Part shown: positions 33,641 to 40,052 of the stretch, piece by piece
How positions within the stretch are numbered: position 1 is the stretch's first letter
Layout of the letters: each line of letters opens with the position of its first letter
Assembly: GCF_015221995.1 (NCBI RefSeq)
Contig: NZ_JADFFM010000001.1
Span: forward strand, 992,001 to 1,056,000
Length of the DNA: 64,000 bases
Source of the DNA: Mucilaginibacter boryungensis
GTDB taxonomy: Bacteria > Bacteroidota > Bacteroidia > Sphingobacteriales > Sphingobacteriaceae
Direction of reading: 5' to 3'
The notes under the pieces: generated by a model
Seen by the model: only the letters and a program-made list of their open reading frames with translations
Told to the model about the DNA's origin: nothing
The model's database searches: none
Made by a program: the position numbers and the translations under genes

Positions 33641-34105
33641 ATGCCCCGTAAGTTCTTCCCGCGAATATTATTTCTGCTTGCAATTATCACCATTGGTTTG
33701 GCGGCCAAGGCGCAATCGCTATCACCTACCGAGCAGATTTTGGGCAGGTGGATGGTTCAGGAAAAAAACCTGCTGGTTGAAGTATACAGAGATGGTAACG
33801 ATTATAAAGCTAAAATCATTTGGTTTAAAACCGACGACCAAAGCAAACGCATGGACGAGTGGACAGACAAACACAACCCCGACCCTGCCCAGCGCGACCG
33901 GAAAATATTAGGTATGAACGTAGTGAAGGACCTGGAATACGATCCCAAAACACACTCGTGGGAACACGGCAAGGTTTACGATGCTAAAAATGGTAAATAT
34001 TGGGATGCATCGGCCTACCTTACCAGGGATGGTTTGCTGAAGGTTACCGGCTACTGGCATTTCAAATTTATTGGCCGCACCATGACCTTCAAAAAAGTAA
34101 GCTGA
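33641..34105 (+). CDS. DUF2147 secreted protein
   Basis: 154 residues with a signal peptide (to about 22, GLAAKAQ). The remainder matches DUF2147: EQILGRWMVQEKNLLVEVYRDGNDYKAKIIWF, GMNVVKDLEYDPKTHSWEHGKVYDAKNGKYWDASAYL and the end GRTMTFKKV. The family is a small lipocalin-like beta barrel of unknown function found in envelope contexts. It starts 55 bases after the family B palindrome and is followed by the arginine leader region. Confidence 0.88.
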   Translation: MPRKFFPRILFLLAIITIGLAAKAQSLSPTEQILGRWMVQEKNLLVEVYRDGNDYKAKIIWFKTDDQSKRMDEWTDKHNPDPAQRDRKILGMNVVKDLEYDPKTHSWEHGKVYDAKNGKYWDASAYLTRDGLLKVTGYWHFKFIGRTMTFKKVS

Positions 34106-34235
34106 GGGTGCTGTTAGTCAACAGATTGACATAATACCTGCGCCCTGTGTTTATTATCTTATTTTTTTCTTGCATAAGTTAAAATTAATGCGGTTTTTTG
34201 CACGAAATTCAAATAACACAAACACGTTATTAAAA

Positions 34236-34361
34236 ATGAAGAAGCCAAGCACATTTAAGCCTGTACCTAAAGCAATTTATGCCTGGGTTGCTGCTGCTTT
34301 GGTTACTAATTTTTTTGAATTCCTTCCTTCCCGACGAAGGCCGTTTATCTCCCGGGTTTGA
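34236..34361 (+). CDS. Putative arginine leader peptide upstream of arg operon
   Basis: A 41-codon frame (MKKPSTFKPVPK...) ending FLPSRRRPFISRV. Four of its last ten codons are arginine, three of them consecutive (CGA CGA AGG at 34332-34340). It is followed immediately by two hairpins and then by the first arginine gene at 34480. Leader peptides rich in the end-product amino acid are the hallmark of ribosome-stalling attenuation. It does not resemble any protein family, and a chance frame is possible. An upstream in-frame start at 34170 also exists. Confidence 0.4.
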   Translation: MKKPSTFKPVPKAIYAWVAAALVTNFFEFLPSRRRPFISRV

Positions 34362-34410
34362 GAACTGCATCAGCAGCCTGATCAAACATTAAAGGTTTGT
34401 TAAACCTTTT
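34326..34410 (+). promoter_or_regulatory. Candidate transcription attenuator of arginine operon
   Basis: Three consecutive hairpins. The first (34326-34340, CCTTC/GAAGG) covers the leader arginine codons. The second (34356-34387, GTTTGA/TCAAAC with inner CTGC/GCAG) starts on the leader stop codon. The third (34391-34409, AAAGGTTT/AAACCTTT plus T) is terminator-like. The layout suits arginine-dependent attenuation; mutually exclusive folds were not computed. Confidence 0.4.
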
Positions 34411-34479
34411 CCCACAAAAACCATTCAATTAATAGGGGCCGTAAGGTCAGATAATTTAACGGTAGTTTCTATTTCACTA

Positions 34480-35139
34480 ATGACAATACAAGATTTTGAT
34501 ATAAAGGTAGCCTCGGCACAAGATGTTGATTACGCCGCACAGATATGCGACGAAATGGCCGAATCGGCAAAAGCACGGGGTACCGGGATTGCGCAACGCT
34601 CGCCCGAATATGTGGCTAACAAAATGCTGGAAGGGAAGGCTGTTATAGCCCTGCATAAAAACGGTACCTGGGCCGGCTTTTGCTATATTGAAACCTGGAG
34701 CCACGGCGATTTTGTGGCCAATTCAGGCTTAATTGTAAACCCCGAATTCAGGAAAGTAGGCTTAGCCAAAGCCATCAAGCAAAAGATATTCGAACTATCA
34801 CGTAAAAAATACCCTGATGCCAAAATCTTCGGTTTAACTACCGGTTTGGCTGTAATGAAAATAAATTCAGAGTTAGGCTACGAACCTGTTACCTACAGCG
34901 AACTTACCCAGGATGAAGCCTTTTGGCAAGGTTGCAAAAGCTGCGTTAACTATGATATCCTTACTGCCAAGGGGCGCAAGAACTGCATGTGTACCGCTAT
35001 GCTTTTCGACCCGGCTGAGAAAGCAAAGGAACAAGAGAATAAAATGAAGCAAATTACGCACAAGGCCACCTTGTTGGAGCGTATAGAGAATGCTTTGAAA
35101 AGGTCAACTAAATTGATTGTTGCTCATAACCGTTTTTAA
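34480..35139 (+). CDS. GNAT-family N-acetyltransferase, probable first enzyme of arginine synthesis
   Basis: 219 residues. A GNAT fold with the acetyl-CoA loop in VNPEFRKVGLAKAIKQKI (R-x-x-G-x-A) and a C-terminal cysteine-rich stretch (WQGCKSCVNYD ... KNCMCTAM) that could bind metal. It starts the cluster GNAT-argG-cupin-argC-argD-argF', 23 bases before argG, so an N-acetyl- or N-succinylglutamate synthase role (ArgA-like) is inferred from position. It is unrelated in sequence to classical two-domain ArgA, since it lacks the amino acid kinase domain. Confidence 0.75.
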   Translation: MTIQDFDIKVASAQDVDYAAQICDEMAESAKARGTGIAQRSPEYVANKMLEGKAVIALHKNGTWAGFCYIETWSHGDFVANSGLIVNPEFRKVGLAKAIKQKIFELSRKKYPDAKIFGLTTGLAVMKINSELGYEPVTYSELTQDEAFWQGCKSCVNYDILTAKGRKNCMCTAMLFDPAEKAKEQENKMKQITHKATLLERIENALKRSTKLIVAHNRF

Positions 35140-35162: not shown

Positions 35163-36353
35163 ATGAAAAAAAAGAAAGTAGTATTAGCCTATAGTGGCGG
35201 ATTAGATACCTCGTTTTGCTGTATTTATTTAACCCGCGATTTGGGTATGGAAGTACATTCGGTAATTGTAAATACCGGTGGTTTTAGCGATGAGGAATTA
35301 AAAAAGGTGGAACAACGCGCTTACGAAATGGGCGTAACCAGTCACCACGTGGTTGATGAGACCGAAAACTTTTACAACACTTGCGTGCGTTTCCTTATTT
35401 ATGGTAATGTCCTCAAAAATAATACCTATCCGCTTTCGGTAAGTGCCGAGCGTGTTAGCCAGGCTACCGCTATTGCCAACTACGCTAAAGAGATTGGTGC
35501 CGAAGCCGTTGCCCACGGAAGCACCGGCGCCGGTAACGACCAGGTTAGGTTTGATATGATCTTCAACATCCTGGTGCCCGAGGTTAAAATAATTACCCCT
35601 ATACGAGATTTGAAACTAAGCCGCGAAGAAGAAATTGAATACTTGAAAAAGCACGGGGTTGAAATGAACTTCGAAAAAGCTAAATACTCTATCAATAAAG
35701 GCATTTGGGGTACATCAGTTGGCGGTAAGGAAACCCTGACATCAAACTTAGGTTTACCTGAGGATGCCTGGCCTACGCCAATGACCGAAACCGGCAGCCG
35801 CGATATTGAACTTACCTTTGAAAAAGGTGAATTGGTAGCTATTGATGGTACGAAGTACGATCATCCTACTAAAGCTATACAAGCCTTGCAAGCTATTGCT
35901 CAGCCTTATGGCATAGGCCGGGACATCCACGTAGGCGATACCATCATTGGCATTAAAGGCCGTGTGGGTTTTGAAGCTGCCGCACCAATGGTAATTATCA
36001 AAGCGCATCATACTTTAGAGAAGCATGTGTTAACCAAATGGCAGTTAAGCTGGAAAGATCAATTGGCATCTTTCTACGGCAACTGGCTGCACGAAGGTCA
36101 ATTCCACGACCCGATTATGCGCAATATAGAAGCGTTCCTTACTGATACCCAGGATAAAGTGAGCGGCAAAGTGTTTGTGCAATTGAACCCCTACAGGTTC
36201 CAGGTGGTGGGCATTGAATCAGACCATGATTTGATGAGCAACAAATTTGGCAGCTACGGCGAAATGAACAATGCCTGGAGCGGCGAAGATGTAAAAGGCT
36301 TCTCAAAAATATTTGGTAACCAGGTAATGATCTACCATAAAGTAAATAGTTAA
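35163..36353 (+). CDS. argG: Argininosuccinate synthase
   Basis: 396 residues, normal length. The N-terminal ATP pyrophosphatase loop is AYSGGLDTSFCCIYL, followed by STGAGNDQVRFD and KYSINKGIWGTSVGGKE. It joins citrulline and aspartate with ATP to make argininosuccinate in arginine synthesis. The start is 23 bases after the GNAT gene and the stop is 4 bases before the cupin gene, so it is mid-operon. argH, which performs the next step, is not in this window. Confidence 0.96.
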   Translation: MKKKKVVLAYSGGLDTSFCCIYLTRDLGMEVHSVIVNTGGFSDEELKKVEQRAYEMGVTSHHVVDETENFYNTCVRFLIYGNVLKNNTYPLSVSAERVSQATAIANYAKEIGAEAVAHGSTGAGNDQVRFDMIFNILVPEVKIITPIRDLKLSREEEIEYLKKHGVEMNFEKAKYSINKGIWGTSVGGKETLTSNLGLPEDAWPTPMTETGSRDIELTFEKGELVAIDGTKYDHPTKAIQALQAIAQPYGIGRDIHVGDTIIGIKGRVGFEAAAPMVIIKAHHTLEKHVLTKWQLSWKDQLASFYGNWLHEGQFHDPIMRNIEAFLTDTQDKVSGKVFVQLNPYRFQVVGIESDHDLMSNKFGSYGEMNNAWSGEDVKGFSKIFGNQVMIYHKVNS

Positions 36354-36357
36354 AACC

Positions 36358-36717
36358 ATGGCTGCACCGGTATATTCAAAAGATGATTGCATACAACATT
36401 ACGAATGGGGCAATGGCTGCCATGGCTGGACGTTTGTGGATACCGATGAACTGTCTGTTAAGCAGGAGCTAATGCCACCCAGCGCGTCGGAAGAATTGCA
36501 TTACCACGCTAAGGCTACGCAGTTTTTCTTTATACTGAAAGGCAGTGCCATTTTTTATATAGACGGCCAGATTAAAATATTAACCGAACATCAGGGTATC
36601 GAAATTCAACCGGGTCAACAGCATCGTATCAGCAATCACAGCGAAGCCGACCTTGAATTTATGTTATACTCGCATCCATCAACCAAGCATGACAGGATCA
36701 ACATCGAACAAAATTAA
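36358..36717 (+). CDS. Cupin-domain protein in arginine operon
   Basis: 119 residues, a single cupin barrel: HYEWGNGCHGWTFVDTDELSVKQELMPPSASEELHYHAKATQFFFILKG (metal-site histidines in ELHYHAKATQ) and GIEIQPGQQHRISNHSEADLEFMLYSHPSTKHD. It starts 4 bases after argG and overlaps the 5' end of argC by 29 bases, so it is tightly coupled to both. Its substrate is unknown; a regulatory or accessory role in arginine metabolism is inferred only from context. Confidence 0.85.
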   Translation: MAAPVYSKDDCIQHYEWGNGCHGWTFVDTDELSVKQELMPPSASEELHYHAKATQFFFILKGSAIFYIDGQIKILTEHQGIEIQPGQQHRISNHSEADLEFMLYSHPSTKHDRINIEQN

Positions 36718-37723
36718 GGCAGGCATTATTGGCGGGGCTGGTTACACCGGCGGTGAAATGCTGCGGATATTGGTGAACCACCCTAATGTGGATATTACTT
36801 TTGTAAACAGCAGCAGCAATGCTGGTAATTACATTTACGATGTACATACCGACCTGCTTGGTGATACCGACCTGAAATTCACCGGCGAACTATCAACCGA
36901 TATTGATGTGTTGTTTTTATGCGTTGGTCACGGCGATGCGAAGAAATTCCTGGAGGCCAATGCTATCCCAGACACGGTAAAAATTATCGACCTGAGCCAG
37001 GATTTCAGGTTGAAATCTAAAGCCCAAAGCCTAAAGTCTGAAGCCACCGCGACTTTCGATTTAGGGCTTTCGACTAAAAACTTCACCTACGGTTTGCCGG
37101 AATTAAACCGGGATGCTATTAAATCGGCACAGAACATAGCTAACCCAGGCTGTTTTGCCACATGTTTGGAATTAGGCTTATTGCCTTTGGCCAGCCAGCA
37201 ACTGCTAAACAGCGAAGTACATATTACGGCTACCACAGGTTCAACAGGTGCTGGGCAAAAAGCTACAGCCACCACCCATTTTACCTGGAGGAATGATAAC
37301 CTATCGGTTTATAAGGTGTTCGATCACCAGCATTTGAACGAGATAGGCGAATCGCTTAGCCAGCTTCAACCTAACCCTGCACCTATCAACTTTGTTCCGT
37401 ACCGCGGTGATTATACCCGAGGCATCATTGCCTCGATATACACAGAAAGCGAGCTGACGGAGCAGGAGGCGCTGCAGCTTTACCAGGACTATTATGCAGG
37501 GCACCCGTTCACACATGTCACCAACCGTGATATTGATTTGAAACAGGTAGTAAATACCAATAAATGCTTTATCCAGGTGAAAAAGCACGGTAATAAAATA
37601 TTTATTGTAAGCATAATAGATAACCTGCTGAAAGGCGCATCGGGCCAGGCGGTGCAGAACATGAATTTGATGTTTGGCTTTGAGGAAACAGCCGGCCTTA
37701 AACTAAAAGCTAACGCATTTTAA
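36689..37723 (+). CDS. argC: N-acetyl-gamma-glutamyl-phosphate reductase
   Basis: 344 residues from ATG 36689 (MTGSTSNKIKAGIIGGAGYTGGE); the frame extends further upstream but this start gives the normal N-terminus. The NADP-binding GGAGYTGGE and the catalytic cysteine motif NPGCFAT are present, with the C-terminal FVPYRGDYTRGI. It reduces N-acylglutamyl phosphate to the semialdehyde. Between IDLSQDFRLKS and NFTYGLPELNR the chain holds about 20 extra residues (KAQSLKSEATATFDLGLSTK) encoded by an imperfect palindrome (see repeat at 37019). Confidence 0.95.
   Translation: MTGSTSNKIKAGIIGGAGYTGGEMLRILVNHPNVDITFVNSSSNAGNYIYDVHTDLLGDTDLKFTGELSTDIDVLFLCVGHGDAKKFLEANAIPDTVKIIDLSQDFRLKSKAQSLKSEATATFDLGLSTKNFTYGLPELNRDAIKSAQNIANPGCFATCLELGLLPLASQQLLNSEVHITATTGSTGAGQKATATTHFTWRNDNLSVYKVFDHQHLNEIGESLSQLQPNPAPINFVPYRGDYTRGIIASIYTESELTEQEALQLYQDYYAGHPFTHVTNRDIDLKQVVNTNKCFIQVKKHGNKIFIVSIIDNLLKGASGQAVQNMNLMFGFEETAGLKLKANAF
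37019..37070. repeat. Palindromic element inserted in frame within argC
   Basis: Arms AAAGCCCAAAGCCTAAAGTC (37019-37038) and GACTTTCGATTTAGGGCTTT (37051-37070) pair at 15 of 20 positions, including perfect 7-base outer and 6-base inner ends. The wording resembles the intergenic AAAGCCTAAAGC repeat at about 48775. The reading frame is kept open across it. Confidence 0.55.
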
Positions 37724-37842: not shown

Positions 37843-38973
37843 ATGAAATTATTCGACGTATATCCTATAAACAATATAAATATCACCAAAGGCGTAGGCA
37901 GCCTGGTTTTTGATGATAAAGGGCAGGAATATCTTGACCTGTACGGTGGCCATGCCGTTATTTCCATCGGTCACACTAACCCGCACTATGTAAAACGGTT
38001 GGAAGACCAGTTGCACCAGATAGGTTTTTACTCAAACTCTATTGAGATACCCTTGCAAAAGCAATTGGCTGAAAAATTGGGCCAGGTAAGCGGTAAGCAA
38101 GATTATCAATTGTTCCTGGTAAACTCTGGTGCCGAGGCGAACGAGAACGCGCTGAAGCTGGCATCGTTTTACAACGGCAAAAAAAAAATTATAGCCTTTA
38201 AAGGCGCTTTCCATGGGCGTACATCATTGGCAGTTGCGGCTACCGATAACCCTAAAATTGTAGCGCCGGTTAATGAAACCGATAATGTGACATTTTTGCC
38301 CTGGGCGGATGAAGCTGCTTTAGAACAGGCTTTTAAAGATCACGCGAACGAAATATCATCGGTTATAATCGAAGGCATACAGGGGGTAGGCGGCATACAG
38401 GTAGCGCCGGTGAGCTTCCTTCAAAAGATCAGAACGCTTTGCGACGCGCACAACGCTGTATTTATTGCCGATTCGGTGCAGTGCGGTTACGGCCGTACAG
38501 GCAAATTCTACTCGCACGATTTTGCCGGTATCGATGCCGATATTTATAGCATGGCTAAAGGTATGGGCAATGGTTTCCCTATCGGGGCCATCAGTATATC
38601 GCCGAAGATCCAACCGGCTTATGGTATGTTAGGTACAACCTTTGGCGGCAACCATTTGGCTTGCGCCGCGGCATTAGCTGTGTTGGAGGTAATGGATCGG
38701 GATAACCTGATGCAAAACGTTGCCGAAGTTGGTGCATACCTGATTGATGAACTGAAAAAGTTTAAGCAGGTGAAAGAAGTACGCGGACGCGGCCTGATGA
38801 TCGGTATCGATTTGCCGGCTGAGCTATCGGACGTGAAAAAGAACCTGTTGTTCAAGCACCATATATTTACCGGCGAGGCTAAGCCAAACGTTATCCGTTT
38901 GCTGCCAGCGCTAAATTTAACCAAAGCACATGCTGATCGTTTCCTTGAAGCGTTTAGCAAAGAAGTAAATTAA
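37843..38973 (+). CDS. argD: Acyl-ornithine / acetylornithine aminotransferase
   Basis: 376 residues, class III PLP-dependent aminotransferase. LFLVNSGAEANENALKLA is the phosphate-binding region, FIADSVQCGYGRTGKF the cofactor aspartate region, and YSMAKGMGNGFPIGA contains the Schiff-base lysine. It converts the N-acylglutamate semialdehyde from ArgC into N-acylornithine for ArgF'. It lies 119 bases after argC with a family A palindrome between, and 131 bases before argF' with a family B palindrome between. Confidence 0.93.
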   Translation: MKLFDVYPINNINITKGVGSLVFDDKGQEYLDLYGGHAVISIGHTNPHYVKRLEDQLHQIGFYSNSIEIPLQKQLAEKLGQVSGKQDYQLFLVNSGAEANENALKLASFYNGKKKIIAFKGAFHGRTSLAVAATDNPKIVAPVNETDNVTFLPWADEAALEQAFKDHANEISSVIIEGIQGVGGIQVAPVSFLQKIRTLCDAHNAVFIADSVQCGYGRTGKFYSHDFAGIDADIYSMAKGMGNGFPIGAISISPKIQPAYGMLGTTFGGNHLACAAALAVLEVMDRDNLMQNVAEVGAYLIDELKKFKQVKEVRGRGLMIGIDLPAELSDVKKNLLFKHHIFTGEAKPNVIRLLPALNLTKAHADRFLEAFSKEVN

Positions 38974-39104: not shown

Positions 39105-40052
39105 ATGAAACTATTTTCTTCTGTTAACGATGTTACCGACATCAACGCACTGGCTGTTGAAGCTTTAAAACTAAAAGCTGATCCATATGCTTTTCAGCAT
39201 CTGGGTAAAAACAAAACTTTGGTATTGGTTTTCCTTAATCCAAGTTTGCGTACCCGTTTAAGTACTCAAAAAGCTGCCATGAATTTAGGTATGGATGTGA
39301 TGGTGTTGAACATCGACAAAGAAGGCTGGGCGTTAGAGCTGCGCGATAACGTAGTGATGAACGGTACCACGGTCGAACATATCCGCGAAGCGGCAGGCGT
39401 AATGGGGCAATATGCCGATATTATAGGTCTGCGTTCGTTTCCCGGCTTGAAAGACCGCGACGAAGATTATAGCGAAATGGTATTTAACAAGTTTGTGCAG
39501 TTTTGCGGGAAACCCGTGGTTAGTCTTGAATCGGCTACTCGCCACCCGCTGCAAAGCCTGGCAGATCTGGTAACTATTACCGAACTAAAAACCCGCCCGC
39601 GCCCTAAAGTGGTGTTAACCTGGGCGCCGCATGTCAAGGCCTTGCCCCAAGCTGTACCAAATTCCTTTGCCGAATGGATGTGCAAAGCCGATGTTGATTT
39701 TACCATTGCGCACCCCAAAGGTTACGAACTTTCAGGAGAATTTACACAGGGAGCCACCATTACCCATAACCAGCAGGCAGCCTTGGCCGATGCGGATTTT
39801 GTATATGTAAAGAACTGGTCGGCATACGAACCTTATGGACAAATGCCTGCTGTTACTGAAAACTGGTTACTAACTAACGACAGCTTGAAAAATACCAACA
39901 ATGCTAAAGTAATGCACTGCTTGCCTGTGCGCCGTAACCTGGAATTAAGTGACGAGATATTGGACGGGCCACACTCGGTAGTAGTACACGAAGCGGGCAA
40001 CCGCGTTTGGGCTGCGCAGGCCGTGTTGAAACAGATGCTGGAGAGTTTATAA
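39105..40052 (+). CDS. argF': N-acetyl- or N-succinylornithine carbamoyltransferase
   Basis: 315 residues. The carbamoyl phosphate loop is FLNPSLRTRLSTQKAAMNLG, with SLESATRHPLQSLADLVTI and MHCLPVRRN near the C-terminus; the latter and the 70s loop place it with the Bacteroidota/Xanthomonas transcarbamylases that act on acylated ornithine rather than ornithine. At the position described as deciding acetyl (Glu92 in Xanthomonas) versus succinyl (Pro90 in B. fragilis) substrate this protein has Val90 (TTVEH), so the acyl group is uncertain. It is the last gene of the cluster and is followed by hairpins. Confidence 0.9.
   Translation: MKLFSSVNDVTDINALAVEALKLKADPYAFQHLGKNKTLVLVFLNPSLRTRLSTQKAAMNLGMDVMVLNIDKEGWALELRDNVVMNGTTVEHIREAAGVMGQYADIIGLRSFPGLKDRDEDYSEMVFNKFVQFCGKPVVSLESATRHPLQSLADLVTITELKTRPRPKVVLTWAPHVKALPQAVPNSFAEWMCKADVDFTIAHPKGYELSGEFTQGATITHNQQAALADADFVYVKNWSAYEPYGQMPAVTENWLLTNDSLKNTNNAKVMHCLPVRRNLELSDEILDGPHSVVVHEAGNRVWAAQAVLKQMLESL

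What the first reader, a model, noticed from the sequence alone, without database searches (positions are those of the whole stretch)
34236..34410. Candidate arginine leader peptide and attenuator ahead of the arg operon
A 41-codon frame ends RRRPFISRV with four arginine codons in ten (three consecutive). It is followed by a hairpin over its stop codon (34356-34387) and a terminator-like hairpin with T-run (34391-34410), 70 bases before the first arg gene. This is the layout of ribosome-stalling transcription attenuation. To my knowledge arginine attenuators of this kind are not a standard feature of Bacteroidota, where ArgR/AhrC-type control is usually discussed.
Basis: partly seen in the sequence, partly recalled or inferred. 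Interest (0 to 1): 0.68.

Follow-up and report, generated by a model that had tools for sequence, protein, structure and literature searches.

The report
Arginine-sensing leader peptide before arg operon
A tiny gene just ahead of an arginine-making operon, kept throughout a family of soil and water bacteria and seen in some of their wider relatives, probably makes ribosomes pause when arginine is short and so switches the operon on, apparently in place of the usual repressor protein.

Summary
The frame is real and under selection. In the window's genus (Mucilaginibacter, by matching contig lengths) all 64 loci fetched through the first arg gene alone carry an Arg-rich leader frame. An Arg-pair leader is found in 48 of 59 sequences from the other 19 genera of the family and 23 of 56 outside it, shuffles giving under 1 on average. 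Two parts separate: a rare CGA-CGA codon pair unchanged in 83 sequences, while the other two Arg codons changed 16 and 17 times, always synonymously; and a C-terminal peptide, hydrophobic-P-R-x-stop, under protein-level selection (omega about 0.26 against 1.08 upstream). No ArgR was detected here; ten relatives with argR before the same GNAT-argG-argC genes lack the leader. Hairpins at and after the leader stop covary, but the 'terminator' is followed by one U then CCC, and canonical terminators are hardly enriched in the genus (8 of 84 against 3.8). Arginine-sensing, ribosome-mediated leader control is well supported by comparison, not by experiment; transcription attenuation as the output is unproven. 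The fixed penultimate Arg resembles release-factor-trapping apidaecin and drosocin.

The parts
34196..34201 (+). promoter-like TTTTGC element (putative -7 region of the leader transcript)
   Evidence: TTTTGC/TTTGCA starts a median 39 nt (10th-90th percentile 38-41) upstream of the leader ATG in 82 of 84 genus loci, 28.3 expected from shuffles (motif chosen after looking). The textbook TAnnTTTG is not enriched in this genus (4 of 84 vs 7.3 expected) but is in the other genera (28 of 62 vs 6.2).
34236..34361 (+). leader ORF, 41 aa, MKKPSTF...PSRRRPFISRV, stop TGA
   Evidence: no Pfam or NCBIfam match; no Rfam family over its threshold
34332..34337 (+). locked CGA-CGA codon pair, proposed arginine-starvation sensor
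   Evidence: CGA at both positions in 84 of 84 genus leaders, zero changes on a tree of 83; CGA is 18 of 599 Arg codons in 48 long ORFs of the window
34338..34358 (+). C-terminal peptide element R-x-[FY]-[IM]-P/S-R-V before the stop
   Evidence: omega about 0.26 over codons -6..-1; Arg(-7) and Arg(-2) 16 and 17 synonymous, 0 nonsynonymous changes
34356..34387 (+). P0 hairpin around the leader stop codon
   Evidence: over 67 family loci native pairing -10.3 vs -7.2 kcal/mol when swapped between genera, 0 of 1000 permutations as strong; absent from that test for the genus itself (z +0.3 for 10 genus loci) and weak in a test made for the genus
34391..34409 (+).
   Evidence: best hairpin after the stop starts at +27 +/- 4.5 nt in 84 genus loci, with 65 distinct 5' arms; -4.66 vs -1.49 kcal/mol in shuffles; no U-run after it here
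34437..34448 (+). C hairpin GGCC-GTAA-GGTC
   Evidence: mostly the same position with GGC/GCC, GCC/GGC, GGTTA/TAACC and similar stems in relatives; region z -1.13 on average
34455..34464 (+). D element TTTAACGGTA just before the first gene
   Evidence: TTTAACGGTAA in 35 and AACGGTA in 48 of 84 genus loci; role unknown, pairing with leader codons not kept across the genus
34480..35139 (+). first gene of the operon, GNAT-fold acetyltransferase
   Evidence: Pfam Acetyltransf_1 at 20.5 bits, just under its 20.7 cut-off; no NCBIfam family
35163..36353 (+). argG
   Evidence: TIGR00032 above cut-off
36358..36717 (+). small cupin-domain gene inside the operon
   Evidence: Pfam Cupin_2 above cut-off
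36689..37723 (+). argC (start inferred as the internal ATG)
   Evidence: TIGR01850 above cut-off, residues 21-351 of the ORF from 36653
37843..38973 (+). argD-type transaminase
   Evidence: best NCBIfam hit TIGR00707, below its cut-off
39105..40052 (+). argF-type (N-acetylornithine) carbamoyltransferase
   Evidence: best NCBIfam hit NF003384, below its cut-off

Best explanation
It is a ribosome-mediated, arginine-responsive leader peptide controlling the operon GNAT-argG-cupin-argC-argD-argF. The mRNA probably starts roughly 30 nt before the leader. When charged tRNA-Arg(ACG) is short, the translating ribosome halts at the rare CGA-CGA pair, leaving the leader end free to form the P0 hairpin and the downstream RNA in the form that allows expression. 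When arginine is plentiful the ribosome runs through to the stop codon next to the conserved P-R-x end, covers the P0 arm, and the downstream hairpins settle into the non-permissive form. Shown by comparison: the ORF, the codon lock, peptide-level selection, the hairpins, linkage to the arg operon, no ArgR detected. Inferred: the transcript start, the starvation signal and the sense of control. Not resolved: whether the output is termination of transcription, blocked translation of the GNAT gene, or both.
For: Arg-rich leader in 64 of 64 gene-anchored genus loci; Arg-pair leader in 48 of 59 sequences of other family genera and 23 of 56 outside the family, against 0.7 and 0.9 expected from shuffles and 2 and 0 on the reverse strand. 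CGA-CGA: 84 of 84 leaders, 0 changes of any kind against 16-17 synonymous changes at the other two Arg codons; CGA is 3% of Arg codons; a tRNA-Arg(acg) gene is present. No PF01316 match over its cut-off in the genome or in the 14 family genomes of the class draw. Of the 14 class genomes with ArgR, 10 have it 0.5-0.6 kb before a GNAT gene on the same strand; all ten read argR-GNAT-argG-argC, and 0 of 10 has the Arg leader before the GNAT gene or before argR, so leader and repressor occupy the same slot. P0 and B hairpins maintained by covariation. A named genome collection, overlapping the same species, gives such a tail in 76 of 80 loci (looser score, no shuffle control).
Against: No convincing intrinsic terminator in the genus (8 of 84 vs 3.8 expected); P0 is weak in the genus itself; the post-stop 36 nt on their own are not unusually structured (z -0.2 and 0.0); no pair of mutually exclusive structures was demonstrated; conservation of P, F/Y and the penultimate R is not explained by codon counting. 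One large genus (g14, tails like that of Pedobacter psychroterrae) has no Arg pair near the stop (…SRQNFTPRI). I found no expression data for this locus.
Confidence: 0.7

Rival explanations
1. Ligand-sensing arrest peptide: free arginine (or ornithine/citrulline) acts on the ribosome with the nascent C-terminus and stalls it at the stop codon, as tryptophan does with TnaC; the Arg codons are there for the residues, not the codons.
For: Peptide-level selection next to the stop (omega 0.26); Arg at -2 fixed relative to the stop while the CGA pair slides between genera (-9/-8, -8/-7, -10/-9); penultimate Arg favoured also outside the family: 14 of 23 ORFs chosen without looking at the last three residues, against 1 at -3 and 1 at -1 (among all 39 short ATG ORFs there, Arg is at -2 in 56%, -1 in 23%, -3 in 10%).
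Against: CGA-CGA is locked at codon level, which an arrest peptide does not need. No ligand site is known; high-arginine stalling would have to repress, the reverse of TnaC.
Confidence: 0.13
2. Translational rather than transcriptional output (a variant of the best explanation, not exclusive of it): the leader Arg-Pro codons pair with the region just before the GNAT start and hide it; a ribosome stalled on those codons frees the start.
For: In the Sphingobacterium-type (g16) and Parapedobacter-type (g4) loci CGACCTA/TAGGTCG and ACGACCC/GGGTCGT complementarity is strong (z -1.7 to -2.6).
Against: Not kept across the window's genus. Over all genera the A-D test (p 0.024) is no better than an unrelated control segment (p 0.002). 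GNAT starts are not clearly more paired than other genes' starts (0.47 vs 0.49; other genera 0.55).
Confidence: 0.25
3. The ORF is incidental and the conserved thing is a structured RNA (riboswitch or protein site).
For: Conserved hairpins B, C and P0.
Against: Selection acts on the reading frame: Arg(-2) and Arg(-7) change only, and Pro(-3) mostly (20 of 25), synonymously; no Rfam match over threshold.
Confidence: 0.04
4. The product is a free-standing small protein with its own function.
For: Conserved C-terminus.
Against: Codons -28..-13 evolve neutrally in the genus (omega 1.08) and the N-terminal part is unrelated between genera; it was found only next to this gene.
Confidence: 0.03

Closest known systems
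Ribosome-mediated transcription attenuators of amino-acid operons (trpL, hisL, leuL type; recalled)
   Same: Short ORF with a cluster of codons for the pathway's end product, hairpins downstream, first biosynthetic gene next
   Different: No clear intrinsic terminator in this genus, no demonstrated competing structures, and conserved non-control residues at a fixed distance from the stop
F. psychrophilum structured 5' regions with leader peptides (PMC9723704, section 19 read, other passages seen)
   Same: Same phylum; leader-peptide attenuation proposed upstream of amino-acid operons
   Different: That section names no arginine operon; pheA and hisG are among the structured elements it names
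RbfL of Staphylococcus aureus (PMC13009471, passages read)
   Same: A leader peptide senses arginine shortage by pausing at rare Arg codons (AGA, AGG)
   Different: There pausing blocks the downstream ribosome site and controls a biofilm regulator, not arginine synthesis
[quoted passage not shown] passages read)
   Same: Penultimate Arg with P (apidaecin) or I (drosocin) before it; apidaecin's conserved PRPPHPRL shares R(-7), P(-6), P(-3), R(-2) with the common family leader end RRPFMPRV
   Different: Those are free insect peptides acting in trans; P11 of apidaecin is Arg here, and P(-6) holds in only 29 of 84 genus leaders; trapping of release factor by the leader is untested
TnaC and SpeFL arrest peptides (TnaC: abstracts in a search listing; SpeFL recalled)
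   Same: Regulatory leader peptides that act at their own stop codon
   Different: Tied to catabolic operons; no CGA codon lock known to me; the sequences were not compared here

Membership tests
classical starvation attenuator | leader ORF with clustered codons for the operon's end product | tested here: met
classical starvation attenuator | intrinsic terminator (hairpin plus U-run) between leader and first gene | tested here: not met
   8 of 84 in the genus vs 3.8 expected; 11 of 59 vs 2.8 in other genera. Hairpins abutting a U-run near the GNAT start in other genera (t 3.9) but weak in this one (t 1.8), related sequences counted as independent
classical starvation attenuator | mutually exclusive antiterminator and terminator helices | tested here: inconclusive
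   P0 and B are adjacent rather than overlapping in many genus loci. The one long helix of a weak RNAalifold consensus pairs the leader end GGTTTGA with TTAAACT in the B region, and about eleven loci have such a best partner; that would exclude B, but the leader end hardly varies, so covariation could not test it
classical starvation attenuator | expression responds to the amino acid | not testable with these tools
   needs reporters or RNA-seq
classical starvation attenuator | selection only on control codons | tested here: not met
   codons -6..-1 omega 0.26; -5 F/Y in 84 of 84 and -4 I/M in 83 of 84
Type II PrAMP-like termination arrest | Arg at the penultimate position | tested here: met
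   64 of 65 selected ORFs in gene-anchored genus loci (the odd one a second ORF in L057) and 43 of 45 in other genera (the odd ones a different ORF in L070 and Lys in L100), selected without looking at the last three residues; outside the family 14 of 23
Type II PrAMP-like termination arrest | traps RF1/RF2 on the ribosome | not testable with these tools
   needs toeprinting
T-box, riboswitch or other Rfam family | match to a curated covariance model | tested here: not met
   window 33900-34700: one sub-threshold hit on the other strand; 18 relatives: only two sub-threshold miRNA hits
ArgR/AhrC control | ArgR gene in the genome | tested here: not met
   PF01316 best match 12.7 bits, cut-off 27, in G000

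The most novel reading that the evidence does not exclude
The leader is a two-part device: a CGA-CGA starvation sensor joined to a nascent, apidaecin/drosocin-like C-terminus (R-P-[FY]-hydrophobic-P-R-[VA]-stop) that traps release factor and parks the ribosome at the leader stop when arginine is plentiful, holding the downstream RNA in the closed state. Support: Arg is fixed at -2 across the genera while the CGA pair slides; the constraint at -2 is on the residue (17 synonymous, 0 nonsynonymous changes); the one true exception among the family leaders read is Lys (L100), and Lys is the substitution reported to keep drosocin active while Ala abolishes it (PMC10449632, passages); the one genus leader whose stop was lost ends, four codons on, in I-R-L-stop (L147). 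Bacteria would then be using the insect antimicrobial's trick on themselves.
Probability: 0.15. Interest if true: 0.88.

Novelty: new variant of a known kind. Interest (0 to 1): 0.62.

Why it matters
It would make leader-peptide control, not ArgR, a main regulator of arginine synthesis in a large family and in part of its class. The ten argR-GNAT-argG-argC relatives give a clean natural contrast of repressor versus leader at the same operon. The leader separates codon-level from peptide-level selection in one short frame, and it offers a direct test of whether bacteria use release-factor trapping for gene control.

Tried and rejected
Long-range pairing of leader Arg-Pro codons with the region before the GNAT start: striking in g16 and g4, but in the window's genus the leader changes while the downstream element does not. 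Over all genera it is no stronger than a control segment that itself reached p 0.002, so those permutation p-values are anti-conservative and I rely only on P0, whose effect is three times larger.

Kissing loop between the P0 loop and the B loop: good in g16 (z -3.1), partial in g4 and g15 (-1.5, -1.3), little or nothing in most other genera; its overall gain (0.9 kcal/mol) is about that of the same control (1.0).

Canonical terminator search, a C-rich Rho-type site after the stop (C/G ratio 2.0 in the genus, but long pyrimidine runs are commoner inside the leader there), and start-site sequestration did not give one consistent output mechanism. RNAalifold on a plain MAFFT alignment of 84 genus sequences did not return hairpin B but a rival helix, so hairpins were compared by position instead.

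Selection effects: the pick of leader ORFs for rewarded Arg at -2, so the counts lean that way; one search repeats the count without that condition. The g1 set of 84-85 sequences includes loci found through the leader; the 64 do not. L147, whose leader stop is lost, was left out of the 84-sequence sets, L013 has no GNAT gene on its contig, and one more sequence dropped out of the tree. One search left out 15 loci of g5, g8, g14 and L100 from its 'other' table. Omega values are crude parsimony counts on a tree of 288 nt of the GNAT gene.

Full report
What is there. The frame 34236-34361 encodes MKKPSTFKPVPKAIYAWVAAALVTNFFEFLPSRRRPFISRV and ends 118 bases before the first gene of an arg operon: an acetyltransferase of GNAT type (weak Pfam match), argG, a cupin gene, argC, and argD- and argF-type genes. 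The second has no U-run to speak of: after its 8-bp stem come one U and CCC.

Is it more than chance. I fetched upstream regions through the GNAT gene, not through the leader, to avoid choosing positives. In the window's genus 64 of 64 such loci carry an ATG frame with at least two Arg in codons -13..-4. Including loci found through the leader itself, 85 of 85 distinct upstream sequences pass the Arg-pair test against 0.4 per shuffle set. Fifty-nine sequences from the other 19 genera with a GNAT match give 48 passes (0.7 expected). By eye the other 11 have a related tail: L077 ends RRPFMPRA but lacks an ATG start in the frame, L100 ends LRRSSMPKA, and nine of one genus (g14) end in TPRI without an Arg pair. 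Outside the family 56 of the 97 genomes with a GNAT match were read and 23 pass (0.9 expected, 0 on the reverse strand). A named genome collection, which overlaps the same species, gives 76 of 80 by a looser score; of the four misses two have little or no upstream sequence (L280, L295) and one ends in NRQNYTPRI. It also names the genus: contigs of G034 and G047 have the exact lengths of Mucilaginibacter limnophilus and M. psychrotolerans contigs.

What selection sees. On a tree of 83 genus sequences, codons -28..-13 evolve neutrally (omega about 1.08). The two CGA codons at -9 and -8 never change, not even synonymously, although half of the single-base changes that do not make a stop would be silent there. 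Arg(-7) and Arg(-2) change 16 and 17 times, always synonymously. Codons -6..-1 have omega about 0.26, with F/Y at -5, I/M at -4 and P at -3. CGA is 18 of 599 Arg codons in 48 long ORFs of the window, and a tRNA-Arg(acg) is among the 30 tRNA loci scanned. That inosine at the first anticodon position reads CGA slowly is recalled. CGACGA lies in the tail of 84 of 84 genus leaders and 47 of 62 others. So a codon-level element and a peptide-level element coexist, and the first slides relative to the stop between genera while Arg(-2) does not.

Repressor or leader. No ArgR passes the cut-off in the genome. In 296 class genomes ArgR passes its cut-off in 14; none of the 14 family genomes drawn is among them. 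In 10 of the 14 it lies 0.5-0.6 kb before a GNAT gene on the same strand. I fetched all ten: each reads argR-GNAT-argG-argC with 50-64% identical proteins, and none has the Arg leader before the GNAT gene or before argR. None of the 23 leader-positive genomes outside the family is among the 14. Second GNAT copies in four g14 genomes have neither argG within the 1.5 kb held beside them nor an Arg-pair leader. That argG follows the GNAT gene was checked for only three leader loci besides the window (L107, L173, L178).

RNA structure. P0, the hairpin around the leader stop, is kept by compensation between genera, for example CTGCCTC/GAGGCAG, CTACCTC/GAGGTAG, CTGCCCC/GGGGCAG, GACGC/GCGTC. Over 67 loci native pairing is -10.3 kcal/mol against -7.2 when partners are swapped between genera, with 0 of 1000 permutations as strong; ten genus loci in that test show no gain. 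In a test made for the genus it is weak but above all 30 shuffle sets (13.2 vs at most 12.6). Hairpin B, the best hairpin after the stop, starts at +27 +/- 4.5 nt with 65 distinct 5' arms in 84 sequences; its energy averages -4.66 against -1.49 in shuffles and its centre scatters 4.6 nt against 15. Hairpin C near the GNAT start is also kept. Runs of five or more T lie within 40 bases of the GNAT start in 51 of 84 genus loci and 29 of 59 others, against 7 of 48 genes of the window. In the other genera, but hardly in this one, a hairpin abuts the run, for example TCCGCcaaGCGGATTTTTT in L075. Terminator-like output near 34455-34479 is therefore as plausible as at 34391-34410, and neither is convincing in the window itself.

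Mechanism. The simplest reading is starvation sensing: ribosomes halt at CGA-CGA when charged tRNA-Arg is short, P0 forms, and the downstream RNA permits expression; with arginine the ribosome reaches the stop and masks the P0 arm. The codon lock argues for this. The peptide-level constraint at the stop is left over. Its signature, a penultimate Arg after P or a hydrophobic residue, is found also outside the family (14 of 23 ORFs chosen without looking at the last three residues). It matches the functional end of apidaecin and drosocin, whose penultimate Arg touches the GGQ glutamine of the release factor (PMC11347161, PMC11549390, PMC10449632; passages read). A slow release at the leader stop would serve the repressed state. 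This is an analogy, not a demonstrated function.

Known or new. Six library searches aimed at this topic listed no paper whose title or abstract start reports an arginine leader in Bacteroidota. PMC9723704 (section 19 read) proposes leader-peptide attenuation upstream of amino-acid operons in F. psychrophilum without naming arginine in that section; its supplements were not available. PMC7366714 (passages) mentions leader-like small ORFs in B. thetaiotaomicron. No Rfam, Pfam or NCBIfam family covers the leader. I file it as working like a ribosome-mediated attenuator but, since the terminator feature and the 'control codons only' feature were tested and not met, as a new variant.

Noticed in passing
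L337-L346 (G470, G626, G656, G496, G408, G520, G442, G540, G641, G578): In ten genomes of other Bacteroidota families argR stands before GNAT-argG-argC, the place the leader holds in the window's family.
   Followed up: yes
L118-L121: A second, about 55% identical GNAT copy in four g14 genomes has no argG beside it and no Arg-pair leader upstream.
   Followed up: partly
L079-L085, L168 (g16, Sphingobacterium-type tails) and L065-L068 (g4, Parapedobacter): In most of these TAGGTCG or GGGTCGT just before the GNAT start is complementary to the leader Arg-Pro codons.
   Followed up: partly
L069-L071, L101, L104 and L174, L176, L178, L182, L192, L197, L201: Leaders ending in RR or in another Arg tail are followed by a hairpin whose loop reads TACGC, TACGT or close, sometimes complementary to GCGTA just after the stop.
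   Followed up: no
L147: The leader stop codon is lost and the frame runs four codons further, ending again with Arg at the penultimate position (PRVLIRL).
   Followed up: no
L333, L334: Myroides species have a close relative of this GNAT gene with leader-like tails TRVRA and QSRIRA.
   Followed up: no
34455-34464: TTTAACGGTA before the first gene is well conserved in the genus without a consistent pairing partner.
   Followed up: partly
36358-36717: A cupin-domain gene of unknown role sits between argG and argC.
   Followed up: no
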